Shown: positions 6,568-37,431 of the stretch, piece by piece
Layout of the letters: each line of letters starts with the position of its first letter
Numbering within the stretch: the stretch's first letter is position 1
Assembly (NCBI GenBank): GCA_002917775.1
Contig: KZ627149.1
Span: 46,829 to 84,613, forward strand
DNA: 37,785 nucleotides
Origin: Glaciozyma antarctica PI12
Taxonomy: Eukaryota > Basidiomycota > Microbotryomycetes > Kriegeriales > Camptobasidiaceae
Direction: 5' to 3'
Translations under genes and position numbers: made by a program
The notes under the pieces: model-generated
The model's database searches: none
What the model saw: the letters and a program-made list of their open reading frames with translations, nothing else
What the model was told of the DNA's origin: nothing

Positions 6568-9500
6568 TCAGTTCAGCAGCTCAACACTCCTCCCATCGCC
6601 CGAAGACAGCGCCACGGGCCTACTTCCAAACTCGAACGGATCGCGCTGCACCATCGAACGTATCAGCGAGCCCCTTCAGAGAGAAGAGGGAAGATACGCA
6701 CCTCGTAAGCGACGAATTCCTCAAACTCGTGCGCGACGGGGAGGTCGAGCATCGTCTCGAGGTTCGACGAGAGCCAGGCGACAGCGTCGGAGCGGATGAC
6801 TTCTCCGTTCGAGTCTCTAGCAGCCCAGGCAGCTTCCCAGAGCAGAGTGCGAGCTTGCCATTCTTCCGGTACCTGGAGCGAAACTGTCAGCGAAACGCGA
6901 TGGAGAGCAAGGTGAACGCACGCCTAGGCCAACGAGTACACCGGCGTTGTGGAGGATGTTGGCAGCGTTACGCTTGGTGAGAGGAGGACCGGGGGTGCTG
7001 TGGACGGAGGGGTAAGTCGGTGCGCGATTGAGAAGGAAGAACGCGCGCACGCTCGACGTTCGTCCCACGATTCAGGGAACGCGCGAGGAGGGCTGAGGAT
7101 GACCGAGATACCAGCGTCGGCGAGCTCGTCGGCGACAAGGTGAGACTCCTGTCCTCCATGACTGCCGATGCGTCAGCTCAATGCCAACCCCAAAGTGAGA
7201 AGACGAACATGACCCATTTGAGCTTCTTCCCTCCCACTAACGTCGAAGCCGCCTGGACCTCCCTCTTCAGCAGAATGAGGGTAGCAATAACGTCGGCCTT
7301 CCCCGCGTTCACGACCAGCGATATCTCGCCTCTCGCAACGAGCGCGAAATAGTCGGTCCCTTCGCTCGTCGCAGCGTCCCCCCTCAAGCCACCGAGGAGC
7401 AGGCCGCGAAGCTCAGCGATCTCGGTGCTGATAGAAGGCATCTGCGTTCCCTTGTAGTGTCCAATCGTCCTGCGCGATCATTAGCTCGGTGCGAGGGAGG
7501 AGCGAGGAGGACTCACACATGCAGCGCGACGGCGTCCTTGAGAACCGCTCCCTTCTCCAGAACTGCTCGCGAATCGTCAGCTCCTGCAATTCTTCTCGAG
7601 AAGAAGTCGAAATAATCTCACCATTTGCCGCCCCAGTCCTAAACGCCACACTAACGCCCCTAAAGAACCCGTCCCCCAGCGGCGCCGTAATCGCCTTCCC
7701 CACTCCCGCCGCTTTCGCAATCCTCAAATGCTTCCCCCCAAACGCCAGTCCATCCACCGCTTTCACCGCCACTCTTGGTCCCCACACCTGCTGCGCCCGA
7801 CTAAGCTCCCCGTGCATGAGCGGATCGAAGACGGGCGCATCGGTCGTGGAGCGCTCGGCGATGATCTCGGTTAGACCGAGGGCGGGACCGAAGGCGATGA
7901 TGGGAGGGAGGAGGGAGCCGCCGTGGAGGTCGATCGAATGGACGTTGGTGGTGGGACAGAGGCCGAGGCAGACGATTGAGCCGGCGCGGAGGTGGATTGA
8001 GAAAGGGGTGGGGAGGTCGGCGCCGAGAGACGTGAGAGCGCCTTGTTGGCGGAGAAGGACCTCTGAGACGTTCGTGAAGACCACTTCGTCGAGCTGCTCG
8101 ATTTCGGCGATTCCGTGCAAGGCGTCGTCGTCGTCCTCGAGCGTGATGGGCTCCTCGGGCATCGAGGCGATAGGCGGGACGACGTGCGACGTGTCGAGAG
8201 GTTTGGCGGGGTAGGGGTTCCTGAGCTGCGAGATACCGTCGATGAAGACTTGGAGAGGAGTGGCGCCGAGAGTGAGAGGGTGAGAGTCCCAGAGAACGAG
8301 ATCTGCGTCGAAGTTCTTGCGAATGAGGCCAAGACGGTGGCCGAAGCCGGCGGTGCGCGCAGAGTTCGTGGTGATTGAGGCGAGAGCAAGGTTGGCCTGT
8401 CGTAGAATGTCAGTCGAGGAGGGAGGGAGAGGGAGGAGGAATTGCACTCACGGCAAGGCCGAAGTGGTGAGCTTGCTGAGCCTCGAAGAGGAGGTAGCGA
8501 GAATCAAGGACGGGGTGGTCGCTCTTCATGATCACCTGCGCGCGATGGGTTCAGCTGCGTGCGAGCGAGGAGAGACTGCAAGGGAGGAACGCACCGTGAT
8601 GTTGTTCTCCGCAAGGATCTTGCCGGCGTACTCGCTCCCCCTCCACGCCTCGCGCTTGTACCTCGCGCTGCGGGAATCAGCCATTGCTTCAGATCGGGGA
8701 GGAAGCGGCGCACTTGGTAGCAAAGATGGCGACGGCTGGAGTCGAGTTCCACGCCGTTTTGATCAAGTCGGGCACCATGTAGGCCTCGTGAGCGTGATGG
8801 AACTGTTCGCCCCGTATCAGCTCCACGAATCCTAAGGACCGAAAAAGGGACTCGCCGCAGCGATGGGGAACTTGAACTCGTTCGTGTGGCGAACAAACGC
8901 TGAGAAGTCGGTCGATTCATAGCAGTGCGTGTTGACGAGGACCTGTCGAGTAAGTCAGCTTCTTCTCCAAGCCGGATTGAAGAAATCACACCTTCCCGCG
9001 AAGAACGTCGACCAGCGCCTCCCACTCGAGGTCATCCGGGAACTTGGCAGCGAGAACGTCTCCCTTCGAGTGGGCGATGAGTGCGGCTTCGCAGTACTCG
9101 TCTTGCGAGATCTTGATCTTGCGCGCGATCTCGAACGACGAGCGGAAGTTGTACGCCAGATCCATTCGAGTCTTCTCTTGCGAGATCAGTTCAATCGTCT
9201 TAGACGCAGCGAGGGGGAACGAACGACGCACCTGCTGGTGAACTCTGCGGATGTTCTCACCACACGCCATCTTCATGTGCCTCCACCTCGGTGGCTCTCC
9301 CTCCCTCCACTCCTTCCCTTTTCCCACCACATTATACGGCATCTCCAGCACCAAGCTCTCGGGCGTCCTTTCCCTCGTCTCGCGCAACTTGATCACGAAC
9401 GCCTGTCCTCCGATATTGTTGGCGCTGCCGGGGAGGATGAGGGACGAGGTGACACCACCAGAGATGGAGCGCTTGTAGGAGAGGTCGTGCGTGTTGAGAC

Positions 9501-10599: not shown

Positions 10600-12243
10600 T
10601 CACAACTTGACGACCAGCACGCTCAGGTTATCCGACGAGAAGTTCCTGCTCCGCCAACGCCATCAGCGACCCTCCCTCATCTCTAGCGAAACGCGAGACG
10701 CACTGCAGCGCATGATCCAACAGCGCCTTCGAAGCCTCCTGCGGGTCCTTGAGCCCCTTGATGATATCGACCGCTTCCTGGTCCTGGCAGACGTCCCACA
10801 GCTGCAAACGCGATCAGCTCCCGCACGGCGAAGGCGAGGAGAAAGGACGAACCCCATCGCAAGCGACGATCAGGTAGTCGTCCTCGGGGCTGAGAGTCGT
10901 CTCGGTCGTATAAGGCGATCCGACGACGAATTCCTTCATCGACGAATCTCCCAGTGAGCGCGTAACAGCGAGCACGCCTGATCGTATCGTGAGCTCGCGT
11001 TTCCAGCTCAGCAGAGGAGACAGCGTACCGTTGACCCGATTGTTCATCACGAACCCTCCAGCGTCGGTGATCCTCTTCGCCTCCTGCGCGTCCGAGCCTT
11101 TGTGATCGTACGTCAACCTGACCGCTCTCCCCGCTCGTCTGCGCGCCTCAATCAGCTCGACCCCCACTGACCTCTGCGAGTAAAAAGGAACGCACGACAA
11201 AACCGCCCTCGCATCTCCCACATTCGCTGTGTACAACGTCCGCTTCGCCGCCTTCTTGACCTCCGCCGGTCCCCGCACCTCGACGACAGGATCGACCACT
11301 CCCTCCATCTTCCGCGCCTTCCCATCCATCTGTTCCGGCGTCGCCGTAAACTCGTCCGTCTTCCCTCCCAAGAAATCCTTGATCTTCTCCATCCCCTCCT
11401 TGAACTTCCCCTCCTTGAACATCCCCTTCTTCTCCTCCTCGCCCTCCTTCAACCGCGTCGAAACCGCCTCGACGTTCCCCGCCTTTAGCCTCGCAGAGAC
11501 CATCTCGAGCTGCAACCTCATCGCCGACTTGTCGTCCTTATCCTCCTTCTCCCCCTCTTGAGCCGCTTTCAACGCCCCCAACGTTTCCCCCCTCACCTCC
11601 CCCTCTCTCACCTCTACCCCACTCCCCACACCCCCCGCAGCTCCCACAGCCTTCCCCTCCTCGTCCTCGAGGCGTAGGAACGCAACGACGGCCGTACAGC
11701 CGCTGTGCGTGCCTTCGGAAGCGGCGAGTTGGGAGAGCCGAGTATCGACGAGGTGGAATGTGCTGTTGAGGAGGTCGGGGATAGGAGTGGTAGGAGACGT
11801 TCGGAGAGCTTCGAGGAGGTGCTGCGTGTGTGATGGTTAGCAAGTGAGTGCGGGAGGAGGGAAGGGACGGACTTCGTGGAAATGCTCGCCGCACCATTCG
11901 GCTGCGTGCTTCCCTGCGTGTCCGTCAAAGACGGCGAAATAGCCTTGTCCTCGGATCCCACCGAAATCGTAGATGAAGGAATGCGCACTGCGTTCGTGCG
12001 TTAGCTTCGTTCGCGAGAGAGGAGGGGAGGCAGCGCACTCTTCCATCGTTCGCCGACACTTCTTATTCCGATCCACGCTCACGCCGACCTTGAACGCTGA
12101 CTCGGTCGTCGCAGGGTGTTGGTTCAGCGCCTACAGACTCTAATCAGCGTCGCCTCCGCCGAACGCGCGGGAGAACGCACCCCAAACGTGTCCTCTCCAT
12201 CTGCCAGCGTCTCCTCCTTTGTTCGTGCGTTCGGACTCGCCAT
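10600..12243 (-). CDS. PTC1: Protein phosphatase 2C, Ptc1 type
   Basis: A minus-strand gene with several short introns; ATG at 12243, TGA at 10600-10602. The spliced protein follows yeast Ptc1 block by block: [127 protein letters not shown] and a final [14 protein letters not shown]. The metal-binding acidic residues of PP2C (the Glu and Asp of RRTMED, DGHAG, the DG before LWD, and the Asp of SDN) are all present, so it should be an active Mg/Mn-dependent Ser/Thr phosphatase. Yeast Ptc1 turns off MAP kinase pathways such as HOG and acts in organelle inheritance; a like role here is inferred. A Lys/Glu-rich insert of about 140 residues lies before LYTANVGD, where yeast has under 20. The open frame runs upstream of 12243 but reads like leader sequence. 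Confidence 0.95.
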
Positions 12244-15026: not shown

Positions 15027-15366
15027 NNNNNNNNNNNNNNNNNNNNNNNNNNNNNNNNNNNNNNNNNNNNNNNNNNNNNNNNNNNNNNNNNNNNNNNNNN
15101 NNNNNNNNNNNNNNNNNNNNNNNNNNNNNNNNNNNNNNNNNNNNNNNNNNNNNNNNNNNNNNNNNNNNNNNNNNNNNNNNNNNNNNNNNNNNNNNNNNNN
15201 NNNNNNNNNNNNNNNNNNNNNNNNNNNNNNNNNNNNNNNNNNNNNNNNNNNNNNNNNNNNNNNNNNNNNNNNNNNNNNNNNNNNNNNNNNNNNNNNNNNN
15301 NNNNNNNNNNNNNNNNNNNNNNNNNNNNNNNNNNNNNNNNNNNNNNNNNNNNNNNNNNNNNNNNNN
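15027..15366. other. Assembly gap, 340 N
   Basis: A run of undetermined bases. It interrupts the 5' part of F-box copy 2. Any open frame drawn across it has no meaning. Confidence 1.
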
Positions 15367-20113: not shown

Positions 20114-23100
20114 CTACAAAATCCGAACCGCCTGGTACCCCCCAACGAACCCCTCTATCTCCGACATTGGGTTCTCCGCCATAGCACTTCGATAAAAGCC
20201 CCACTGCGGCACGAATCAGCACCTCAACCACCACCACACGCGAGCCAGAAGGACGCACCTTGAGACTCGATGCGCTCCCCATCTGTCCTACCGCCGTGTG
20301 CCTCAACAAAGCCTTCGTCGGATCTCGCGCGTCGGCAAGGACGTAATCGAATGAGCCGTTCGCCCCGTACTTGACGACGAGTGAGTGCAGGATGGGTCTT
20401 CCCCAGAACTCACTGCCAGAATCGGTTAGCTGGTACGGGAGGAGAGAAGAACGGACGAACGAGATGGGAAGTGAGGGACAGTCGGGGACGCCAGGCTTGC
20501 CGCAGCGGTCGAGGAAGTCGTTCATCCAGACCCAGCCCCATGAAGAGCTAAGCGCTATGATTGGACCTGGTCGACGATTCAGGAGCTGCTACGAGTAGGT
20601 GGAGAGACGAGGTACCGGGGAAGCAAGGATCACGGGACAAGAGTTGCCTGTGCGAGAGAGGTCAGAGCAGCGCGGCGGAGAGGGAAGGAGCGACGAACCA
20701 CATGTGGAAGAACTTTCCAGACGTCACTAAGCCCTCCTTAAGGTACGTACTGCAAAGAAATCAAGTCAGATGGACGGAGAAGTGAAGGACAGCAAAACGT
20801 GACGCACCTCCAGGTGTACTTCCAAGTCGTTCCCGCTGCCGCTCCAGGCCAGCTCAGAAACTCGATACGCTGCCGAGGACTTGCCCAGGTAGGGGTTGGA
20901 GCGGATGACGTCGGTGAAGAAGTTGAGGTGACGGTGGTGGTCAAAGATAAAGAAAGGGTCGGCGTAGGAGTGGCGTCGGTCGAGGCTGAGGAATTTGATG
21001 CGGTGGTAGAGGAGGAGGAGAGTATTGGTGATACCTGTTGCTTGATTATGAGCATACTAGCACTGAGTGTTCCGGACAAAGTCAAGGAGCTGCTCGCGGA
21101 CGCGACCGAAGTCAACGACTCTGAGCTCGCCTGACTTGCGATGATATGGCTCACCGTTGTGACAGCAGTACTCAGAGTCGTCATGCCGGGCAGAACACAA
21201 ACGGCTCGCTTCCTAAGCTCCCAGGGATTTGCCGGAAACGCCTGCCGCAAAAGAGAATCAGCTCGCGGGCCCCCTTGCAACATCGGAACGGAGATACGCA
21301 CGCGCCAATAAAGATCGATATCCTCGTCGTTTCTCCACGCCTGCTCCTGCAGCGAGTAATCTGGCGCAGCCAGGCGGGAGACTGCGATCCTCGCGTTCGC
21401 CGCGAGCGTCGTTCCTGCAGCGACGGTCGTTCCGGAGCTGAGCGACGTGGTCAAAGAAGTCGAAGGAGCCGAGCTGAGGAGCGAGGTGGTGATCGGCATC
21501 GGCGTTTGAAGCATTCCGGTCGAGTTGAGGTACATCCGATAGCACGTCTGCGCGACTCGTCAGCTTCGAATCTTCGCACAATCTGGGAGTGAGCGCACAG
21601 TTACCCCAGGAAGCATGTCGCTGCAAGTTCCCGCCATTAGGATACCCGACGATTGCCACTTAACGAGGGAGGTGAGAGCGCCAGTGGTGACTCCGGTGCC
21701 CAAGCCGAGGGATAGCGCCGTCTTGAGGACAAAGGAGGACGGCGTCAAGGTGTAGGTTGGTAGAGCGGCGAAAGACTCGGTGGATGTGGTTGAGGAAGCG
21801 GTGAGAGTTGCGGCTGAGGACGAGGGAAGTGTCGTGAGAGAAGGGGGCGCCGACGTCGTCGAGACTGCAGAGGACGATCTGTTAGAGCACGCACTCGAAG
21901 GTGTAGAAGATATCTGCGCACCTGATGAAGCGGAAAACGAAGGCGAGGAGGCAGGGCTGGTGAGGGATGAGGATGCGGGAAGTGTTGTCGTTAGGATGGT
22001 CGAGGTGAGGATCGTAGAGGACCTTGACGTGCTTGTTGAGAGCCGTGCGGTGGTAGTTGAGAGTCTCGTGATGGTGATCTGCATGCGCGGAAGTTTAGCG
22101 AGATTCGGCTCATTGCCAGGGAACGACGAACGGTGGTAGAGGTGAGCCGAACCGTGGTAGAGGAGGTTCTGGTTGAAGAGAGCGCCGGAGACCCAGCGAG
22201 CGAAGTCGTCTTAACTACCGAAGAAACGAGGGTGGAGGCCTTGGAGGAAGTCGACGCGGAGGACGGAGGTGCGCGATTTTTCGATTTTTCTAGTCGAAAC
22301 GGAAGTAGATCGCCTCGACGTAGTCTGCACGCGAAAAAAAATCAGCGAGATCTCCTCGAAAACCCAGGGAGCGACGAACCGTGGTAGAGACTCGAATCGT
22401 CGTCGTAGGTTTGCTCGTGATGGGCGCGGTAGAGGTCAAAACGCACGAGGTCGACGTCTGCGCGTACCCAGCCAAGCATTCTGCACTCATGACGCTCCGC
22501 TTCGTTCTGCGTGGTCAAAACGGCGAAGGACTCACTGAAGCCGCAGGTGGTGGCGGAAATGCAGATCCTCGTCGAGTACGCCGGGAGTACGTTCGTGCAC
22601 GCCGATATGGTGCACGCCCACGCTTTACACGCACCTGCGCTAAGGTAGAAGCCAGTGTTACAGACTGCGAGCGAGACGTCAGCGACTTCATATCAGCAAG
22701 AACGCGAGGGCGAAGCTGACCGGCAACGCAAGTTCCTGAGCGGCAGACCCCCTGCTGGTCGAAAAGTAGAGGCATCTTGTAACACTGGCTGTTATAAGCG
22801 CACGCAACTTTGGAAAGAACTGCAGACGGAGGGATTAAAGTACTAGAACGGACGGAGGTCGAGAGCTTTGTACCCGTGGTGGTTGTGGCTTTGGCGGGCA
22901 CCGAGGAGGAAGAGGTCGAGAGCCTCGTGCTGGCGGTGGTCGTAGGTTTGGCGGCCACCGAGGAGGTCGAGAGCTTCGTGCTTGTCGAGATCTTGGAAGT
23001 GGAGTTCAGGACGCACGAGCCCGACGTCTGCATGTACCCATCCCAGCATTCTGCACGCACGTCGTTCAGCTTTCTCTCTTTCCGATCGGAACTGCGAAGG

Positions 23101-23679
23101 ACTCACTGAAGCTGCAGGTGGTCGGGGATATGCAGATCCTCGTCGAGTACGCCGGAAGTACGTTTGTACACCACGACAGGGCGCACACCCACGGTCTGCA
23201 TCCTCCTGAACCGAGGTAGAAGCCAGCGTTACAGACTGCGAGCGAGAGGTCAGCGTCTTTGTGTCTGTAAGAAACTGAGGACGTAGCGGACCGGCGACGC
23301 AGACTCCTGAGCTACAGATGCCCCGCTGATCGGGGAGCAGGGGAATCCCGGAGCAGTGGCTGTTGTAAGTGCACGCCGCGCGCTTGAGGACTGCGGGCGG
23401 AGGGATCAGAGGACCGTTCCATGCTTGGGCTGAGCGCACGAGTAGCTTCTTTAGCTGAAAGGTGCGCCACCGTGCCTGTGTGGTTATCCTCATACTCTGC
23501 AGCGGTATTGACCCAGCTAAAGACGAGTCAGCTATCCTTCCTCATGGGAGCGGGCGAATCGAGGAGACGGCTTACGATTGGTCCCCCTTCAGCGTCGACG
23601 GGAGCCTCCTGGTGGTCGCGCGAGCCAAGGCACAGAGCAGTAGAAGCCCGTAGCCGCCCAGCCACACCGAAAGGCGCAT
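20114..23679 (-). CDS. Secreted cysteine-module / Ser-Thr-rich / jelly-roll protein, two-module form
   Basis: Start ATG at 23679 (MRLSVWLGGYGLLLLCALAR, a signal peptide), stop TAG at 20114. After a short propeptide comes LLKR|AAC, a Kex2-type site, then a cysteine module (CTYNSHC, GICSSGVCV, CNAGFYLG, CTNVLPAYSTRICIS, CWDGYMQTSGSCV). A Ser/Thr linker with TKLSTSS repeats follows, then a second module (CAYNSQC, CNTGFYLSAGACKAW, CTNVLPAYSTRICIS, CLAGYAQTSTSCV) and long Ser/Thr-rich linkers. Next is a conserved middle domain (LVKWQSSGILMAGTCSDML, CYRMYLNSTGM, WRNDEDIDLYW, a second dibasic RKR). Last is a C-terminal jelly-roll-like domain (RIEFLSWPGAAAGTTW, FFHMWQLLSRDPC, FWGRPILHSLVVKYG, TAVGQMGSASSLKWGFYR). 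That domain resembles secreted basidiomycete proteins often likened to fungal polysaccharide lyases, but activity is unproven. Exon edges at about 22100-22400 remain unresolved. Confidence 0.85.
22430..22815 (-). repeat. Cysteine module 2 (repeat unit, with introns)
   Basis: This unit matches module 1 (23010-23391) in coding sequence and in both introns. The first intron of each ends in the same CTCGCTCGCAG after about 56 nt, and the second intron of each begins GTGAGTCCTTCGC. The two units lie about 575 nt apart. Confidence 0.85.
23010..23391 (-). repeat. Cysteine module 1 (repeat unit, with introns)
   Basis: First copy of the intragenic duplication. It begins just after the KR processing site and ends at SGSCVLNST. 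The paralogue at 30700-33173 has a single, more diverged unit. Confidence 0.85.
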
Positions 23680-24366
23680 GGGTGAAGAAGCAGTGGCGAC
23701 GACAGAGACGGCGAGAAGAGGAGAGAGGAGGAGGGCTTGAAGGATTCCAGCTGCCGGGATTGACAGTAACCCACTGTGTTGGCCCCGTGTCGATACAGAG
23801 GGCAAAGAAGGTTCCATTTGAAGGGGGCAAATCTATAGGAATCAAACCTAAATTGTGCGGAAGAGGGCTCGATCGAGCAGACGGAGTGGGTGGGATCGGT
23901 TCTGCCCAGGATCGTCGGCGTCGCGTCGCGCGCGCGCTCAGGGTCGGGCTGCTGTAAACAAGCTTGAACGGGATCGAGCAGCTGGGAGCGGAGGTGGCGT
24001 AAGCTCCAAGAGCTGAGCCACGTCGAGGAAGTGAAACAGCCTGAGGTGCTGGGCTGTCCAGTGAGGTCGGCGGGTCCTTCTGCGGTCCTTGGTCCTGCGT
24101 GATGTCGCTGCGTCTTCCCTGCCGGTGCAGTTCGATCGCCAGAGCGGGGCGAGAGACGAGCAGGAAGAGCCCCGTGTCGCCGGAAGGATGTAGTGCGGTT
24201 GGCTCAGCCCCGAGGCAGGACCTGAGTGGCAAGTGGCGTTAACGACTCCTCAGACCGCTCTCACGACGCTCAAAGTCCTAGAGAGAGGAGCGCAGGAGGA
24301 GAAGAGGTTCGGCCCGCGAACGCGTTTCCATCTCCCTCCGACCCTCCCTGCGCTCTGCTTCTCGGA
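23680..24366. other. Intergenic, divergent promoter region
   Basis: This lies between the secreted-protein gene (-) and the F-box-like gene (+). No additional gene was found. The plus-strand frame runs open from about 24226 into the F-box gene, but without an ATG before 24367. Confidence 0.5.
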
Positions 24367-25532
24367 ATGGCGCACGCACAGTTCCCCACCGAACTCGTCT
24401 CCCACATTTTCCAGCTCACCCTTCCTCCCACGCGCTTCTCCACCTTCGCCGAACGTTCCTCCCTCCTCCGGACGGTCTCCATCGTCTGCACGCTCTGGCG
24501 TTCGCTCGCCCAAGCGCAGCTGTTCGCCGCGCTGGTCATCGAGACCAATGAGGCGGCAGAGAGGCTCCGGAACGTGCTGGTGACGCAGCCGTGGCGAGCG
24601 GAGGGGGTCAGGGTCCTTCGACTTAGGGCACGTTCGAGTCTTGAAGCGGGGCTGCCGGTCAGCGGTGGACTGGTCGCTACGCTGTTCCCGCTGTGCCAGA
24701 GGACTGAGAAGCTGTGTATGATCAGCATCCGCGGGGTCTCGATGAGCTGGTTAAGCATGCTTCCCAGTAGGTCGCCTCTCGACTCTCCTCTTTCGTTCCG
24801 ACTAACGTTGCGAACCGGACAGATCTCGAATCGCTGGTCATGTACTGCTGCGATCAGCCTATCTGCCCCATCTCGCCAACTCACTTCGTATTCTCTCACC
24901 TCCGACACCTCTCCCCATGCGGCATCAGTTTTCGCAATCCCACCTCGATCCAGCACTTCCTCAACCCAACCACCCTCCCTTCCCTTCGTACTCTCGGCTT
25001 TGACGCCGGCAGCAATAACGCAGAGGAACGTCACCTCGCTCGCTCCCTCCTGTCCCTCTCCCCGCAACTCGTCGCCATCTCCCTCGGATTCCCCATCCCA
25101 GATTCCGCGTGCGCACAGGTCCTGCGTACGCCCGTTGGAGACGGTACTTTGCTGGACGTGATTCACGACAAGACACAGTTTGATCTGGACGGCTACGACT
25201 TCCTCGCCCCCCTCGGCGACCCGACTCGGCCGCCAATTTCGAGCGGGAGGTTCCATTTCCGTCTCTACGACCTCGAAGACCTCTCGTTGCGCCCTTTCGT
25301 AGAGGAGGTCCTGGGCAGACGCATCAGGGTCGAGCAGCTTCGCACGCTGTGTCTTCCGAGCTTCCTCACGAGGGGAGAGCAGCCCGAAGTGGCAGAGGAG
25401 CTGGTGGAGGTCTTGCGAAAGGAGGGAGTGGAGCTGTATTCGAGGACTTGGAGAGATGGGACGAGGCGTCGATGGTTTCGCAGGGGTTCTGGAGGCTGCG
25501 AGGAGGAGTTGGGAGGATCGAGTGAGCGATGA
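24367..25532 (+). CDS. F-box/LRR-like protein (intact member)
   Basis: Two exons, 24367-24766 and 24823-25532, give 369 residues. The start is the first ATG of the open frame. The N-terminus (FPTELVSHIFQLTLPP, then SIVCTLWRSLAQAQLF) has the pattern of an F-box: Pro-x-Glu-Leu, hydrophobic helix, then C-x-x-W-R. After it come leucine-rich segments (LRVLRLR-like, NLESLVMYCCDQ, HLRHLSPCGISF, LPSLRTLGFD) in the manner of degenerate leucine-rich repeats, and a tail ending in a charged VELYSRTWRDGTRRRW block. F-box proteins of this layout serve as substrate receptors of SCF ubiquitin ligases; that role is inferred. Exon 1 is exactly 400 nt, as in the paralogue at 34640-35774, and the intron has the same phase. 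It is divergent from the secreted-protein gene. Confidence 0.8.
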
Positions 25533-26316
25533 AGGTGAGCAGTTTCGCTTGGCTCGTCGAGTGTGATTCTAACCGATCTTTCGCTTTCAGATCCCTCGCT
25601 ATTCCTACATACTGCCTCTGTTATTGGACGTCGAGGGGAGGGCTTTGGAGGGAAGGGGGAATCTGTTTGGAATTCAGCGGCTGCGTCGACAACTCAACGC
25701 GGTCAGCCCTGGATCTATTTCCTGCTTGTCGAAAGCTGCACTGAAGCTCACCGGGCGCGCTCCTAGGCTCCCAGCACGCTGTCTTCCCTGCTCCTCACGA
25801 TCTCGCCAAGGGTCTCGCAAGGCAACTCGCTCGCCTTCGTCGCACCAGTTTTTTTCTCCTCTGGCTCGCTGCCTTTTCTTCCTGTTGAGCTGGCCTTGAT
25901 TCCGCTCAAGCTCGCCGTACTCCAGGATCGTCGATCCTCAGAAAGTCCTCGGTCAGCTTGGGAAGCGTCAGGTCGAACGAGTCGTTCGAGCTTCGACCGA
26001 TCTCTTCTCTTTCTCCAACCTCCCACTCGCTGGGTCTACACGGATTCATCGAAAGTACAGCGGATCTACGACTTCGAAGACCTGGTACGTCCTTCGAGCT
26101 CCACGGCGCGCTGTCATCGCTCGCCGCGGTCTCCCCGCCAGCTGGACCCCTCCCCAACCGAGCTCACCAGCTTCTCCTCCAGAAGAGATCTTTTAAGCTC
26201 CTCAGCAACCTCATCGCCATCCTACGCCGCTCCTCCTCCCTCCACGCACGCCGCTCGCGCCCAAAGTGACGACGTTATCGCCTAATCGCCTTTGGCCCCA
26301 CGAAACAGCTCCCCCG
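25533..26316. other. Intergenic, F-box-like gene to GH36 gene
   Basis: No confident gene was found. Open frames lie on both strands around 25900-26285. A minus-strand frame (25906-26157) closes with an orderly acidic stretch (SFDLTLPKLTEDFLRIDD), and another minus frame near 26200 reads EVAEELKRSLLEEKLVSS. These might be fragments of a decayed minus-strand gene, but stops and the lack of any domain prevent a call. The GH36 promoter should lie at the right end. Confidence 0.4.
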
Positions 26317-29300
26317 ATGCCTTTCCATCCTTCCCTCCACTCGCACAGCGTCCTCCCCCTCTCCGGACCTCTCTACTTCACCTACACCTCCACCCTTTCC
26401 CCCGGCATCACTCCCGAACTCTGGACCAACCTCCCTTCCTCCGCCTGGCATGCGATCCCCTTCCTATCTCTCTCCGCTTCGCTCTGGAGCGCCGAGGTAG
26501 AGGTAGAACGGGAGGGAGACTTCGAGTATACGTACAGGCTTAGGCAGCCGGATGGAGGGATCGAATGGCTTGGGAGCGAGGGGGGGAACGGTCGGATCGA
26601 GCTGGTCGCTCCCAGCGGAGGGGTGGAGAGCTGCCCGATCGAGCTGGGACCGCGGGCCAAGGTGGAGAAGGGGGAGCACGGCCTGCTGGCGCGGTATGAG
26701 CTTGGGCAGGGCGTGAGTGGGGATGTGGAGCGGTTCGAGCTGGGAGCTCTCGAGTGGGAGGGAGCTGATGGTGTGGTCTGGGAGCGCAGCGAGTGAGCTC
26801 CTAGTCTTCCCCTACTTGAGCAGGACTAACTGTAAACTGCCAGGCGCACCTGGTACCTGCCTCGTATCCTCCCACCGCCTTCGCCGCTCGCCGCCCTCTC
26901 CCCCTCCTTCGAGGCCCAACTCCTCGTCCTCCGATCCCTCGCCACCACCTCCTCCCCAACGCGCAAGCTCCTCGTCCTCTTCCCCTTCACTACCACGACC
27001 GTCACCGCCTCTCTCGTCGGCCAACCGCTCCAGCTCCGGTGCGAGCGAGACTCCCCAGCTCCGGGCGAAGGTCACCTCGTCGTAGCCTGGGGAGTTGATG
27101 GCGAGCTCGACACGCTCATCAAGCGTTGCGTAGACGTAGCTTCCACCGTTCTCGCCACCTTTCTCCCGGGAGCCCCGGCCGTCCATCCCCCTCCCATCTC
27201 GTTCGGTCCGCACGGCCTCACTTGGTGCACTTGGAACGCGCTCGGGCAGGTCTACACCCTCTCTCAGGTCCTCTCGTCCCTCGATGATTTTGCAGCTCTC
27301 CCCGATTCGTCGTTCGCGGATACGATCGACGCGGTTCTCCTCGACGATGGGTGGCAGGATACCGGTGCACGTGGATCCGGAGGCGAAGGCGGAGCGAGAC
27401 GGCAAGGCGCTGGCGAGCTTTGGAGTTAGGAAAGGGTGGTTTGATTTGGAGGGCGTGCGGGAGAGGAACGGAGAAGAGCTCAAGGAGGCGGTCGGGAAGA
27501 TCAAGGAGCGAGGGGTCGAACGGGTCGGAGTGTGGATGACCCTGGCTGGGTGAGTTCCTCCCTTTGCCCTCGCAAAGATGGAGCTAACAACGGCTGCAGA
27601 TACTGGAACGGCATTCACCCTCACTCGCCTCTTGCGACAAAGTTCCCTCTCTATCGCTGGGAGCTACACTCGGACGTCCACTCAGCCGTCAACACGACCA
27701 TGCACCTCCCCCTCCTTTCCTCCGTCAAAAACTTCTACCTCTCCTACTTCACCACCCTCCGCACCGCCGGCATCTCGTTCATCAAAGTCGACGACCAAGC
27801 GCACCTCGACTACCTCGTCCTCCAACCCTCCCACGACGCTGGCGCCCTCCGCACCGCCATGCTCTCCTCCCTCTCCTCCGCCGCTCTCGACATTCTCGGC
27901 CCCAACTCCATCATCCACAGCATGGCCGGCTCTCCCCGTATCTGGGGCTCCTCCTTCGCCCTCCTCGGCCCCTCCGCCAGCGGTACGAAATCCATTCTCC
28001 GCAATTCAGACGACTACTTCCCACACGCCGCCGATTCGCACCGGTACCACGTCTTCCTCAACGCTCACACCTCCCTCCTCTCGCGCCAACTTCGCTTTTT
28101 CCCTGATTTTGACATGTGCGAAGAGGGACATGCGTGGGGAGAGGCCCATATTGCTTTCAGGGGGTTCTCACCTGCGCCGGTGGTTGCTACGGATCTTGCA
28201 GGGGCCGTCGATGGGAAGGGATGGAGGAAGTTGGAGGCGAGGACTAGGGCGGGGAGGAAGGTGCTTCAGAGTCGTGGAGCGGTGGGAGGAGTGTTGGAGG
28301 GGAGGATTGGGGAGGACGTTCTTGGTAAAGGGGAGGGAGCGGGATTGGTGGTGGGATTGGAGGTGGGGAAGGGCGCGATGTTGGGGGTTTGGAATGTGAG
28401 GAGCGAGGGAGGGAGGACGAGGGATGTTATCGATGCGAAGGACGTCGTCGATGCGCTTGGGGAGGAGAGGGAGGGGGATTACGTCCTCTTTGTCGATCGG
28501 GCGAGGCCGTTCGCGGAGGTGAGTGAGGAGGAGCTCGAGCGGGCGAAGGGAGCACTGAGAGTCGTTGCGAGGCCGCTGCTGGAGATTGGGCTCGAGGAGA
28601 AGGGAGTACAGGTCGTCGTCGTCGCGCCTGTCTTTGAGCTCGCTGCGAGGGAGGAGGGAGGGAAGGGGATCAGGATCGCCTGCGTCGGATTGCTCGACAA
28701 GCACGTCGGACTGGCCGCCATCTCCTCGATCGGAATCGTCCCTCCTCGCCCTCCCTCCCCTTCCTCCCCCTCGTCCTCCTCCTCCAGCTCGACCACTTCC
28801 TCCTCCTACCTCATTCTCACCCCTCCCTCGCCTTACCCAACTCACTTCCCAACCCCAACCTCCCGCCTCGCCTTCCTCGCCACCGCTCTCCTCTCCTACC
28901 GCCGCGCGACCTCCGACCTCCGCACGCCCCGTTCCGAAATCTCGCACCTGATGCACGCACTCGCTCGAAGGCCGTTCAGGACCGTCTGGGACGAGGCGCG
29001 CGGGTTGGTCGCATTCAGCCTCGCGGTGGCGTTTTGGAGTTATTCGGTCGTTTTCAGTCGGAGAAACGGAGCGGCGGAGGAGGCGGTCGAGAAGGCTCTC
29101 TTGCCTGCGTCGTTGGCGGAGCTGGCGAAGGAACGTCTGCGCGTCGAACTCGAGTTTGTCGACGACCGACTCGGGTTCTTCGTCAGCTCGTACGGGGTGG
29201 AGTTGGCGATTGAGGTGGAAGGGACGCTGTTGGGGAGGAAGTTTATCAAGAGGCGCAGGATTGTCGATGAGGATCGGGAGCTGGTTGAGGTGGATTTGGG

Positions 29301-29361
29301 AGGAAGTGGGTTGCCCGAGGGAGGGAGTGGAGCGGGGTGGGTGGTCGAAGTGGCTTGCTGA
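26317..29361 (+). CDS. GH36 glycosidase, raffinose synthase / Sip1 (alpha-galactosidase) type
   Basis: Exons 26317-26792, 26844-27364, 27399-27549 and 27600-29361 give 969 residues in one frame if a 34-nt intron at 27365-27398 is accepted. The ATG at 26317 is the first in frame. An N-terminal beta domain is followed by the barrel: LTWCTWNALGQ, AVLLDDGWQD, KGWFDLEG, VGVWMTLAGYWNG, ISFIKVDDQAHLDYL (likely nucleophile Asp in KVD), SMAGSPRIWGS, and LRNSDDYFP (likely acid/base Asp). A Gly/Glu-rich C-terminal sandwich domain ends at VVEVAC. Length and motifs fit the raffinose-synthase/seed-imbibition branch, which acts on alpha-galactosides by hydrolysis or transfer. No signal peptide is visible, so it is probably intracellular. 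The frame break near 27365 is unusual. The alpha/beta hydrolase follows 176 bp downstream on the same strand. Confidence 0.87.
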
Positions 29362-29537
29362 GGGCGAGGGGGGCTTATGGTGAAGACTGTTGGAAGATTA
29401 CACTCGTTCCACCACCACCACCAGCGAGGCGACGACGAGGAGGACTTGGGCGAATAAACACAGCGAGTCGCCTTGTTCGGCTCCCCCACTTCGGGCTGTG
29501 CTTGTCTCCTCCCTCTTCTCTCCTCCTCGCCGCCACG

Positions 29538-30638
29538 ATGACTACGGCGTGCCCTCTGCCTTATAAAATAGCTCATATCACTCCGACGACACACCTCGCC
29601 TACCTCGACTCGTGGCACGCGCGACCAGCTCCTCTCCCCACCTCCTACACGACCATCCTCGCTCTTCACGGCGTAGGCTTCAACTCTGGTGCGCTCTTCT
29701 CCTCAGCCTTTTTTCAATCGCCGCTGATCCCGTACGCGCAGCCGTGTGGACGCCGCTGCTCTCCTTCATCCCAGCCGACATCCGATTCCTCGCGTACAAC
29801 CAGCGCTCATACGCCGGCTCCTCTCCTGCTTTTGAGAGTGTCCTTCCCGGCGGAACGAACGCCACAGAAGCGTATCTACAAGACCTGCTCGACTTCATAG
29901 CGTTCGCAGTGCAGGAGCTAGCTCTCCCACCCGCGGAAAGCAGTTCAGGCGGGGTGACTCTCCTCGTACGTCCTCTCGTCTCTTCTTCCTCCTCCCTCGC
30001 TAATCTAACGAGGACAGGGCTGGAGCAAAGGCACCGTCCTCCCCCTCTCCCTCCTCTCCTCCCTCCCTCCCAACCCTCTCATCGAATCCCACCTCCGCTC
30101 CATAATCCTCTTCGAACCTCCCGGCTCCTCCCTCGGCCGCTCCACCACCGCCGATTACACGCAAGCCATGTCCTCCGTCTCTCCTCCGCATTCTTCGACG
30201 CCAACAGAGTTCGCAGAAGCGTTCGCAGGGTGGATCGGGGGGTATTCCGAGGGAGGGGACGAGCCGGCGAGCGGACTGGAGGCGCTGGAAGAGGGGTTGA
30301 GGAACGAGGCGTGGCAGCCTGAGTGCGTAGCTCATGGTTTCAGCTGGCGTATGGCTTCGACGGCGGAGGAGGTCAAGGCGAAGGCTTTCGATGCTCTCAG
30401 CCGAGCTGCGAAGGGCGAGGGTCGGCGGGGAAGGATTGGGGTGGGGTTGGTGTATGGTAGGAGGACGAATGGGTATTGTTTGGATGCGGCGAGGACGATT
30501 GAGGGGATTTGGGAAGTGGAGGGGGAGAGGAGGACGGCGGTGAGGAGGATTGAGGGGACGAATCACTTTGCGTTTGTGCACCGGCCGAGGGAGTTCATGC
30601 AGGCAGTGTTGGAGATTCTGGAAGATCTGGGAGCTTAG
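29538..30638 (+). CDS. Alpha/beta hydrolase
   Basis: Three exons (29538-29688, 29742-29965, 30018-30638) give 331 residues, in phase. The fold's landmarks are in order: ILALHGVGFNSAVW (oxyanion HG motif), FLAYNQRSYAGSS, LLGWSKGT with the nucleophile Ser near residue 128 in GxSxG (completed by the second splice), SIILFEPPGS, VGLVYGRRTNGY (acid-residue region) and EGTNHFAFVHRP with the catalytic His. It has no signal peptide, so it is likely cytosolic. Fungal relatives are described only as alpha/beta hydrolase-fold proteins, possibly esterases or epoxide-hydrolase relatives; no substrate can be assigned. It ends just 61 bp from the stop of the convergent secreted-protein gene. Confidence 0.9.
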
Positions 30639-30699
30639 ATAGATCAAGGTGGAGCTGGTAATGCACCTGAGGAATGTGGTCGTACAACAACTGTCTCGT

Positions 30700-33173
30700 C
30701 TACAACACCTGAACCGCCTTGTAACCTCCAACAAAGCTGTCTACCTCCGACATCGGGTTCTGCAGCAACGCACTTCTATAAAGCCCAATCTACACCCACC
30801 AGATCAGCCTGCGTGCCAGCCCAACCAAAAAGCGAAACGTACCTTTATACTCCCCGCACTCCCCACCTGCCCCGTGGCATTGTAGCTCAACAACGCCACC
30901 TCCGGCGCCCTCGCATCCACCGCGACGTAGCTCATCTTCCCCGTCGGTCCATAAGTAATCTTCATCTCATGCGAGATCGGTCGTCCCCAGAACGACCTGC
31001 GAAAAATGCATCAGCACTTGCCTTGGCACGATGAGGGAAGGGACGTACGTGAGGCTCATAGAAGGGCAGGGGATCCCCGAAGTACCGCCACAGCGGCCTG
31101 GGACGAGGTCGGCGACGAAGACGCGGCCGGAGGAAAGGCTGAGCGTCATGACTGGACCCGAGAGGCATGGGTCGCGCGAGAGGATCTGCCTGCGTGCGAA
31201 GTTGGTCTCAATGCCGCTTCTCAAAGGCAGGAGAGGGAGGAACGAACCACATGTGGAAGAACTTGTTGGAGAGGACGACGCCGGGGGTGAGGTAGGTCCT
31301 GCGAAATAAGTTAGCGCGAGAAGAAGGGGAGCGAGGGATGGACGTACGTCCAGGTGTAAGTCCAGGAAGTACCGGCTGCGCCACCGGGCCAGCTGAGGAG
31401 CTCGACCCTCTGTCGGGAGGTATCGACGAAAGTGGGCGTCGGTACGGCGGTCGAGGTGGTCGTTGAGGCGATCGGGCGGGTCGTGAGAGTCGAGGTGGTT
31501 GAGAGGGTGGTGGTGAGGTTGACGGTGGCTCGGCGGGCGAGGGTAGCGATTTCTCGTCCGGTTGTTGTGGAGGCAATCCTTCGTCCTGTTGTCGTGGAAG
31601 CCGATGTTGGAGCGAGGGTCGTGCTGGTGGAGACGGGAGCGATGACACAGGCTCGCTTCATCAATCCCGAATGATGCTCCGGGAAAGCCTACGTGCGAGA
31701 ATCTTCAGTTCCTCGTTTAGTGTGAGGGAGAGAGGGTACGCACGGCGTAGTAGCGCTCCAAGTCCTCGTCGTCCGTCCAGGCGTCAACGTCCAGCGACCA
31801 CTCTGAGCGCGCACGAATCCCAGCAGTCCTCGCCACGGTCAGGGCCGAAGTCGCGGTCGAAACAGCGGTAGTCGTCGTCGAAACGGCGCTAATGGTGGTC
31901 GAAACGACGGTAGTTGCGGTCGACGAGAGTGCGGTGGTCGAGGGAAGAGGGGATTCGAGCATTCCAGTCGAGTTGAGGTACATGCGGTAGCACGACTGCG
32001 AAGCCAAATCAGCTCGCTTCGCTTTCGCAAAAATCGAAATGCTCACAACAACTCCTGGAAGCAGATTCCCGCAGAGGCCTGATGTGAGGACGCCAGAGGA
32101 CTGCCACTTGAGGAGGAGGTTGATGTTGCCCGTGAGCATTCCGACCGTGCCGTTCGTGATAACAACGGACGGCGAAAAGGAGAGAGTGGTGGTAGGGAGA
32201 TCGGTGGGAGGAGCGGTGATTGAGGTGGAGGTGACGGTGGAGGTGGTAGAGGAGATGGGGAGAGTCGTGCTGGTTGATGAGGCGGAGGAGAGGGTGGAAG
32301 CGAGCGTCGTCGAAATGAGGGTTGAGGTGGGCCTAGTCGAGGAGACGGTCGAGATGGGCTTGGTCGAGGCAAGAGTGGAGCTGAGCTTGGTCGTCGTGAG
32401 AGTGGAGCTGAGCTTGGTAGAGGTGAGGGTCGAAGTGGGCTTGATCGAGGAAGTCGTCGCAGCGGCCGTCGCTGTCGTCTTTGCGGCGACGGCGCATTCT
32501 CGATTTATCCAGGTGTACCCGCCAAAGCATCCTATCTCATCGCAATCAGCCTCAAGATTTCTCCGCCGAGGAAGGGAGAACTCACGGAACCCGCACGTCG
32601 TTGTGGAGATGCAGATCCGGCTTGAGCGGGCGGGAAGGACATTGGTGCACTTCCTCATGTCGCAGACGTACGCTTTGCACGTTTGAGTTGTCGTATCGAG
32701 GTAGTAGCCGGCGACGCAGACTAGAAAAAAAAAAAAAACCTACAGCTGCGGCCGAGGGAGGGACTCGAGGTGCGAATAACGAACATGCGGTGCAAACTCG
32801 CGACGAGCAAATCGCCATCTGGTTTGCGAGGAGAGGAGTGCCACCGCACTGAGTTGTTGACGTGCAGGCGGTTCGCTTGACCACTGCGAACGGGGGTGTT
32901 AGCGAGGTCAGAGGAGTCCAAGGAGACAATACGTACGAGTTCCTCGTTGAGCGTTGCTGAAGTCGCTGGCTTGCAACGGATCCAGGAGATTAGAATACGA
33001 ATCGATCTGCCTAGCCATTTGCGAAATCGTTAGTACCAAAGGACAAAGGAGGAGGAGGGGCGCGTGAGTAGCGCTTACACTTGATCCCCAGATCGTGTAG
33101 GAAAGCTCGCTACGCCGTTCAGAGCGCAGAAAAGAAGCGCGACAGACGCGCTGACAGGAAGTGGAAGCAGCAT
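30700..33173 (-). CDS. Secreted cysteine-module / Ser-Thr-rich / jelly-roll protein, one-module paralogue
   Basis: Start ATG at 33173, signal peptide LLPLPVSASVALLFCALNG, stop at 30700. The layout matches 20114-23679. A propeptide closes with VVKR before TACTSTTQC. One cysteine module follows (AICSSRVCTA, CVAGYYLDTTTQTCKAY, CTNVLPARSSRICIST, CFGGYTWINREC). Then come a threonine-serine linker with tandem repeats, a middle domain (LLLKWQSSGVLTSGLCGNLL, CYRMYLNSTGMLES, WTDDEDLERYY, a dibasic MKR), a second Ser/Thr linker and the jelly-roll domain (RVELLSWPGGAAGTSW, FFHMWQILSRDPC, FWGRPISHEMKITYG, ATGQVGSAGSIKIGLYRSA, ending GGYKAVQVL). The module's first intron has a run of about 14 T before its TAG end. 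It should be secreted or wall-associated and heavily O-glycosylated. Function is not established; polysaccharide binding or cleavage is a guess from the C-terminal domain. Confidence 0.87.
32320..32450 (-). repeat. Tandem repeats coding the Ser/Thr linker
   Basis: Imperfect units of about 30 nt read STKLSSTLTT, TKLSSTLAST, TKPISTVSST, TRPTSTLIST and so on. They extend the linker between the cysteine module and the middle domain. Confidence 0.75.
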
Positions 33174-36169: not shown

Positions 36170-37431
36170 ATGCCCGTACGCACTCTGCGTGCATACCAGG
36201 ATCCATCCACTCACTCTGAACGCAGGCCTACCACTCATCCTACAATGAAGAGGAGGACCACCGCCTCGTCGGCAACATGGCGCTCCTCCCTTTCAACTCT
36301 CGTATTCGCGGCTCCGCACCTCCCCCCGGTGCGCCCATTCCTCCACAGCACCGTGCAGAACGCAGCTGATGAACTGGCCACAGCGGACCCGACACGCGAC
36401 GACATCATCACCGAGTCTCTGGACCTGTTCCGTGCCAACTCGCTGTTCCGTAACTTTGAGATCAAGGGACCGGCGGATAGGTTGTTGATCTACTTGATCT
36501 TGTTCATTGGGGACTGCTTGACTAAGATCTCGCAAGGTACGTGCCTTCGTGGTGGAGTAGGTGAATGGGCCGGCGTGGCGATGGTGGGGAGCTGCTGGAG
36601 GGAGCGGTGGGCGATGGACGGTGCCGATGGGTAGCGCAGGATGGATACCGAGTAAGACCGAGGACTGAGCTGACTCCCCTCCCTCCCCCCCTCTCGCCAC
36701 GTCTCTCCTCCTATCCACCCTTCACGCACCTCCCTCCGACTCCCACCTCCACCCTCTCCGCTCCATCCACACCAACGTCGTCCTCCTCCCATGCCACCTT
36801 CTCCCTCTCCCTTCCACCCTCGCCTCCCCTCCCCCACAGCCAAAAGCCCCGGATGGACCCCCCTCGAAGCCTCCAAGTTCCTCTCCACTTACGCCGTCGA
36901 CAACTTTACGCTCCCTGGCGAGCCGGGGTTCCCGCTCAACAGTGTCTATGCGGCGCCGGGGGGGAGGGGGGAGGCTGGTGAGTCGTCGTGGTTGGTTTGG
37001 AGTGGGGTGGGGGCGGTGGAGTGGGGAGCGGGCGCGGTGGAGTATGGAGCGGGAGGGGTGCTGGAGAGGGGGAAGAGAGCGAGCGAGAGTGGAGGGACAC
37101 CGCAGAGAAGGCTCGCAGCTCGTGAACGACGGCAGCACGGCACAGCTATCACCGCACCTCCTGGACGCGAATCGGCGCTGACTTCCCCTCTTTCTCCCCC
37201 ACACAGATGCCCTCCGAAACTACCTCACTCACGCACGGCAAGAGACAGCCTCGCGTCTTGTGGAGCGCGTGTATGACGCAGCGAGCGGGGGTAAGCCTAG
37301 CAAGTGGTGGATGTGCTTCCAGGTTCGTTCTTCCAGCCTTCCCGGTGCTTTCTTCTGGGTTTGTTGAGTGACTGCTGACGAGATTGCGAGTGCAGAAGAG
37401 GAAATTTATGGGCAAGAGTCTCGGGGTGTAG
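36170..37431 (+). CDS. ARC18: Arp2/3 complex subunit 3 (ARPC3, p21-Arc)
   Basis: Six exons: 36170-36175, 36226-36328, 36384-36536, 36840-36977, 37207-37322 and 37396-37431, coding 183 residues in phase. The protein reads MPAYHSSYNEEEDHRLVGNM, ALLPFNSRIRG, DIITESLDLFRANSLFRNFE, IKGPADRLLIYLILFIGDCL, TLPGEPGFPLNSVYA, ALRNYLTHARQETASRL, KPSKWWMCFQ and KRKFMGKSLGV. This matches ARPC3 of animals and yeast from end to end (MPAYHS, LVGNMALLP, EIK-ADR-LIY, PGEPGFPLN, KPSKWW-CF, KRKFM-KSL). It is a core subunit of the seven-protein Arp2/3 complex, which nucleates branched actin at endocytic patches. The first exon holds only ATG and one more codon. Two introns (36537-36839 and 36978-37206) are much longer than others in the window. 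The yeast symbol is ARC18. Confidence 0.97.

What the first reader, a model, noticed from the sequence alone, without database searches (positions are those of the whole stretch)
20114..33173. Two paralogues of an unusual multidomain secreted protein flank an F-box-like gene, a glycosidase and a hydrolase
Both proteins share one order: signal peptide, KR site, cysteine module, Ser/Thr linker, unknown middle domain with a second dibasic site, Ser/Thr linker, jelly-roll domain. Both are on the minus strand about 10 kb apart. Cutting at both dibasic sites would release two separate products, a cysteine-module protein and a jelly-roll protein. I do not know a described family with this full layout; it is the best candidate here for a new surface or extracellular-polysaccharide system.
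Basis: partly seen in the sequence, partly recalled or inferred. Interest (0 to 1): 0.75.

Follow-up and report, generated by a model that had tools for sequence, protein, structure and literature searches.

The report
Two paralogous multidomain secreted proteins
Two old duplicate genes, apparently from a fungus, appear to encode secreted proteins made of a cysteine-rich part, Ser/Thr-rich stalks and a conserved end domain, with likely cutting sites that could split each into two pieces; the layout looks real, but the function is not shown and fungal relatives could not be searched.

Summary
On the minus strand, 33173-30700 (gene B, 638 aa, 10 introns) and 23679-20114 (gene A, 899 aa, 16 introns) splice into open frames encoding paralogous proteins. 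Order: signal-like start, pro-segment, LxKR, cysteine module, Ser/Thr linker, middle domain, acidic segment, LxKR, Cys, Ser/Thr linker, C-terminal domain. Each B intron has an equivalent in A at the same place and phase; a blind spliced alignment on genomic A runs from the cysteine module to the C-terminus. Pfam, PDB, GTDB and IMG/VR gave chance-level or below-cut-off matches only, and no fungal collection could be searched. "Jelly-roll" remains a motif guess. The GH36-like and hydrolase genes between them are on the other strand with no evident signal peptide, so a joint polysaccharide system is not supported. Best reading: Kex2-processed modular wall or matrix proteins, an unusual variant of a common fungal kind.

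The parts
30700..33173 (-). Gene B: 11 exons, 10 introns of 49-68 nt, 638 aa precursor
   Evidence: hand-made splicing, all introns GT..AG, no internal stop
20114..23679 (-). Gene A: 17 exons, 16 introns of 48-60 nt, 899 aa precursor; intron 22264-22210 is non-consensus
32873..32878 (-). B first Kex2-like site LVKR|TAC: the KR codons, residues 59-60
   Evidence: coordinates derived from the exon table
32494..32866 (-). B cysteine module, residues 63-147, two 6-Cys units, contains two introns
31942..32196 (-). B middle domain, residues 247-314 (two Cys), contains one intron
31653..31658 (-). B second Kex2-like site LMKR|AC: the KR codons, residues 391-392
30703..31418 (-). B C-terminal domain, residues 471-638, four introns (jelly-roll by motif guess only)
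23380..23385 (-). A first Kex2-like site LLKR|AAC: the KR codons, residues 63-64
23013..23373 (-). A cysteine module copy 1, residues 67-149
22443..22802 (-). A cysteine module copy 2, residues 220-302; preceded by LSKVAC, no dibasic site
21494..21760 (-). A middle domain, residues 476-547, contains one intron
21206..21211 (-). A second Kex2-like site LRKR|AVC: the KR codons, residues 622-623
20117..20878 (-). A C-terminal domain, residues 733-899, five introns

Best explanation
Two anciently duplicated genes of a fungus, probably a basidiomycete (inferred from GC content and short introns), encode secreted precursors that a Kex2-type protease cuts in the late Golgi at two LxKR sites. The first cut removes a short pro-segment. 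The second splits the rest into (1) a product with one or two cysteine modules, a probably O-glycosylated Ser/Thr stalk and the middle domain, and (2) a product that begins at or near a cysteine, has its own Ser/Thr stalk and ends in a compact domain that probably binds or cuts a polysaccharide of the wall or extracellular matrix. Shown by sequence: gene structures, paralogy, site conservation, selection on the three domains. Inferred: secretion (typical-looking start, no dedicated predictor), the actual cuts, O-glycosylation, the fold and the sugar target.
For: Spliced open frames with short GT..AG introns. Each of the 10 B introns has a counterpart at the homologous position and phase in A (compared by eye). 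A blind spliced alignment of B to genomic A gives one chain of 573 codons from cysteine module 2 to the C-terminus, 9 of 14 introns equal to the hand model; A to genomic B gives a chain from the Ser/Thr linker to the C-terminus, 5 of 6 equal. dN/dS 0.24 (cysteine modules), 0.19 (middle), 0.30 (C-terminal), against 0.34-0.70 in linkers and pro-segment (897-aa model; dS near saturation). Both KR sites are kept in both paralogues, all with Leu at P4. Even Cys counts in B products (14 and 4); product 2 of A has 4, and in both the Cys after the second KR is needed for the even count. Ser+Thr 47-60% in linkers.
Against: No transcript or protein data. Cys count of A product 1 is odd, 27. B has a further LARR after site 2, so the cut pattern may be more complex. 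KR frequency itself is at chance, KR is only one of 4 kept dipeptides of 34 in the pro-segment and of 8 of 32 before site 2, and the paralogues are not independent. The hydrophobic start of A (2.05) is barely above a stretch in its cysteine module (2.00). No profile match supports a carbohydrate role. Hand models of A were partly guided by B; five of 14 blind introns on A differed, one of which corrected my model. The blind alignment does not cover the first two introns of either gene, nor the cysteine module of genomic B.
Confidence: 0.5

Rival explanations
1. Only the first LxKR site is cut, as ordinary pro-segment removal; the rest stays one long mucin-like wall protein with a cysteine-rich head and a compact C-terminal domain.
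For: About 30% of 120 effectors examined in PMC8528282 have a putative Kex2-cleaved N-terminal pro-domain (passages); the first site follows a short variable segment, 30% identical over 37 codons.
Against: The second site is equally LxKR in both paralogues, follows a conserved acidic segment and is followed by Cys within three residues in both.
Confidence: 0.3
2. The secreted products act on a host or competitor (effector or antagonist) rather than on the fungus's own wall.
For: Kex2 processing is frequent among effectors (PMC8528282 passages); that effectors are often cysteine-rich orphans is recalled, not from that paper.
Against: Large size, long Ser/Thr stalks and an old paralogue pair under purifying selection fit surface proteins better (inference); nothing I looked at in the window points to a host.
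Confidence: 0.12
3. The cysteine part and the C-terminal part are separate adjacent genes joined by mistake.
For: They are separated by low-complexity linkers, where gene models are weakest; A needs one poor intron there.
Against: In B one exon (32531-32047) runs from the last cysteines of the module through the linker into the middle domain, and one exon (31688-31348) runs from before the second KR into the C-terminal domain; the introns joining the middle part are shared by A.
Confidence: 0.05

Closest known systems
Kex2-processed wall proteins and enzymes of yeasts (Pir family, Exg1, Scw4, Sun41/Sun4, Tos1)
   Same: Kex2 cleavage of wall-related secreted proteins; PMC2515848 passages list Pir, Exg1, CgScw4, CaSun41, CgSun4 as cleaved, and Tos1 as having a further, more internal Kex2 site
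   Different: No sequence match to any solved protein was found here; direct comparison with these families was not made. Internal Kex2 sites therefore have a precedent; a site between two unlike conserved domains was not described in the passages read
KEX2-processed repeat proteins (KEPs), e.g. Ustilago Rep1
   Same: Several products from one precursor by Kex2; Rep1 also has a longer unlike terminal fragment (PMC2515848 passages)
   Different: The KEP survey required at least three repeats with Kex2 sites between them (PMC6339444 passages); here the sites separate unlike domains and the repeated cysteine module in A has no dibasic site
Kex2-processed pro-domain (K2PP) secreted proteins
   Same: N-terminal pro-segment ending in LxKR (PMC8528282, section 4)
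   Different: A second site lies deep inside the protein
Jelly-roll polysaccharide lyases (PL7, PL20, Pfam PF14099; recalled)
   Same: C-terminal domain has RxRxEL, FFHMWQ, GP..L and a late YRS motif in an order resembling those families (recalled resemblance, not a test)
   Different: Only chance-level Pfam and PDB matches to other families; catalytic residues not established

Membership tests
Kex2-processed secreted precursor | N-terminal signal peptide | tested here: inconclusive
   best 12-residue hydropathy lies at residue 7 in both (A 2.05, B 2.41), but in A a stretch of the cysteine module reaches 2.00; no dedicated predictor available
Kex2-processed secreted precursor | KR site with aliphatic P4 | tested here: met
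   LLKR, LRKR, LVKR, LMKR; rule from PMC8528282 section 4
Kex2-processed secreted precursor | cleavage by Kex2 | not testable with these tools
   needs protein
KEPs | at least three repeats separated by Kex2 sites | tested here: not met
   two conserved sites, between unlike domains; second cysteine module of A has LSKVAC; criterion from PMC6339444 passages
Jelly-roll polysaccharide lyase (PL7/PL20/PF14099) | sequence profile match | tested here: not met
   Pfam with A and B domains, PDB with the B domain and a two-row profile: other families at E 0.16 or worse; a profile-profile test could not be set up
Jelly-roll polysaccharide lyase (PL7/PL20/PF14099) | beta jelly-roll fold and catalytic residues | not tested
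EB / EGF-like cysteine module | Pfam match over cut-off | tested here: not met
   1 of 6 units matches EB at E 0.0099, 16.4 bits against a cut-off of 24.3

The most novel reading that the evidence does not exclude
A lineage-restricted family of Kex2-split two-product proteins in which one precursor delivers, in fixed ratio, a cysteine-module binding protein and an extracellular polysaccharide-active enzyme of a new lyase family, acting together on the fungus's own capsule or wall.
Probability: 0.12. Interest if true: 0.65.

Novelty: new variant of a known kind. Interest (0 to 1): 0.35.

Why it matters
If the second cut is real, one fungal gene would deliver two unlike secreted proteins in equal amounts, beside the better known repeat-peptide precursors. 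Three domains without an accepted Pfam match, conserved in an old paralogue pair, are targets for structure work on fungal surface or matrix sugars.

Tried and rejected
Relatives. Pfam: whole proteins, both C-terminal domains, B's cysteine module, six single 6-Cys units, middle domains. PDB: B C-terminal domain, B cysteine module, two-row C-terminal profile, six-unit profile, both middle domains. GTDB: C-terminal domain and cysteine module, not the middle domain. IMG/VR: all three (the middle domain with the older A sequence). tblastn: B C-terminal domain in plasmids, A C-terminal domain in phages. All gave nothing or chance-level or below-cut-off matches; the lowest E-value is DUF5862 for the A middle domain, E 0.0014, 18.9 bits against a cut-off of 33.3. 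None of these collections is fungal except what Pfam and the PDB hold, so absence says little about fungi.

Homology of unit 1 and unit 2 by sequence score alone is not significant (B 181, A first module 287, A second module 522 of 2000 full shuffles reach the score; with Cys fixed 308, 540 and 1029). The repeat claim rests on near-equal spacing of six Cys (5,12,4,3,10-12 against 4,11,5,3,10) and the phase-1 intron at the residue before Cys5 in 6 of 6 units.

KR frequency alone as evidence: rejected. A polysaccharide gene cluster: rejected, see full report. A profile-profile comparison with a lyase family could not be set up: PF14099 gave no locus. Chou-Fasman averages do not discriminate: the cysteine and middle parts lean more to beta than the C-terminal domain.

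My first donor for the A intron in the middle domain was wrong; the blind alignment moved it from 21604 to 21598 and the model from 897 to 899 aa. Searches used the older A model or segments from it; one search repeats the main counts with the corrected one.

Literature: nine searches (one returned no paper). Among the listings I recognised no paper describing this architecture; only titles and abstract starts were seen, apart from passages of PMC2515848 and PMC6339444, and passages and section 4 of PMC8528282.
Full report
What was checked. The window is about 60% GC with a gap of Ns at 15027-15366 and genes with short GT..AG introns, so it is eukaryotic and most likely fungal (inference); no genome is held for it, and no tRNA or Rfam family was found. 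I read both loci on the minus strand in three frames and joined exons at splice sites. Gene B runs from 33173 to 30700 with 11 exons and gives 638 aa. Gene A runs from 23679 to 20114 with 17 exons and gives 899 aa.

Is each a single gene? In B one exon joins the last cysteines, the Ser/Thr linker and the start of the middle domain, and another joins the second KR site to the start of the C-terminal domain. Each of the ten introns of B has an equivalent in A at the homologous position and phase (by eye); A has six more: two from the duplicated cysteine module, three in the linker and one in the C-terminal domain. Because I partly used B to choose sites in A, I wrote a spliced aligner that knew nothing of the target model. 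B against genomic A gave one chain of 573 codons from 22820 (cysteine module 2) to 20117, with 9 of 14 introns identical to the hand model; of the other five, four lie in or beside Ser/Thr linkers and one improved my model. A against genomic B gave one chain of 487 codons from 32508 (start of the linker) to 30703, with 5 of 6 introns identical. So the first two introns of each gene, and the cysteine module of B, rest on the hand models. Nei-Gojobori dN/dS between A and B (897-aa model) was 0.24 for either cysteine module, 0.19 middle, 0.30 C-terminal, 0.38 for the acidic segment before the second KR, 0.34-0.48 in linkers and 0.70 in the pro-segment; dS was 1.1-2.3, so the ratios are rough. A weak spot is intron 22264-22210 of A with a poor donor and acceptor; the blind alignment kept its acceptor but took another donor, and a frameshift there cannot be excluded.

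Anatomy. The most hydrophobic 12 residues of both proteins start at residue 7 (2.05 in A, 2.41 in B), but a stretch in A's cysteine module reaches 2.00, so secretion is likely rather than shown. The C-terminal 40 residues peak at 0.9 in both, so no GPI anchor is apparent. The cysteine module has 12 Cys. It reads as two units of six Cys with spacings 5,12,4,3,10-12 and 4,11,5,3,10, and in 6 of 6 units of the two proteins a phase-1 intron falls on the residue before the fifth Cys. Sequence scores between units do not beat shuffles. A's two modules are 69% identical over 89 codons; the second is preceded by LSKVAC instead of LLKRAAC. The middle domain is 56% identical between A and B and the C-terminal domain 57-58%.

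The dibasic sites. KR dipeptides are not more frequent than chance, but each protein has exactly two LxKR, at homologous places, and two or more LxKR appear in 124 of 20000 shuffles of A and 29 of 20000 of B; the two proteins are not independent. A preference of Kex2 for Leu or another aliphatic residue at P4 and an invariant Arg at P1 is stated in section 4 of PMC8528282. B has one more possible site, LARR, in its last linker. If both LxKR sites are cut, B yields products of 332 and 246 residues with 14 and 4 Cys, A products of 559 and 276 residues with 27 and 4 Cys.

Function. No domain has a Pfam match over its cut-off or better than chance in the PDB. The weak Pfam hits include EB for one of six units (E 0.0099, 16.4 bits, cut-off 24.3) and DUF5862 for the A middle domain (E 0.0014, 18.9 bits, cut-off 33.3; B's middle domain gives none at E 0.1). 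The jelly-roll reading rests on recalled motif order and is untested; mean Chou-Fasman propensities of the C-terminal domains lean only slightly to beta (1.01-1.04 against 0.96-0.98) and less than the other parts. Kex2 substrates that act on the yeast wall are documented, including Tos1 with a more internal site (PMC2515848 passages), so a wall or matrix role is the most economical guess.

Neighbours. Between A and B, on the plus strand, lie an F-box-like gene (PF12937 at E 0.0036, 17.5 bits, below its cut-off of 24.3), a raffinose-synthase-like (GH36, recalled) gene (PF05691, E 4.4e-9) and an alpha/beta hydrolase (PF12697, E 1.4e-6 on a roughly joined protein). The apparent N-termini of the last two are not hydrophobic (0.93 and 0.55); their starts were read by eye and an upstream exon is not excluded. 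They give no support for a shared extracellular pathway.

Verdict. A real pair of old paralogues with a good case for Kex2-processed, multidomain secreted precursors.

Noticed in passing
15027-15366: Run of 340 N: a gap, which explains the low GC at 15-16 kb.
   Followed up: yes
4217-5326, 7413-8447, 10814-11647, 36170-36634, 779-1552: Of 20 ORFs scanned (of 51 of at least 150 aa), these match cytochrome P450, amidohydrolase, PP2C, ARPC3 and GFA over the Pfam cut-offs: ordinary genes.
   Followed up: partly
22132-22324: The Ser/Thr linker of gene A needs a poor intron (22264-22210) or holds a frameshift; B has no intron in its linker.
   Followed up: partly
31996-32046 and 32532-32585: Two introns of B (51 and 54 nt) are multiples of three and open in frame, so retention would give insertions without a frame change.
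   Followed up: no
32285-32450, 31849-31923 and 22855-22966: Tandem repeats of 27, 21 and 57 nt within the Ser/Thr-coding linkers or stretches, a possible source of length variation between strains.
   Followed up: no
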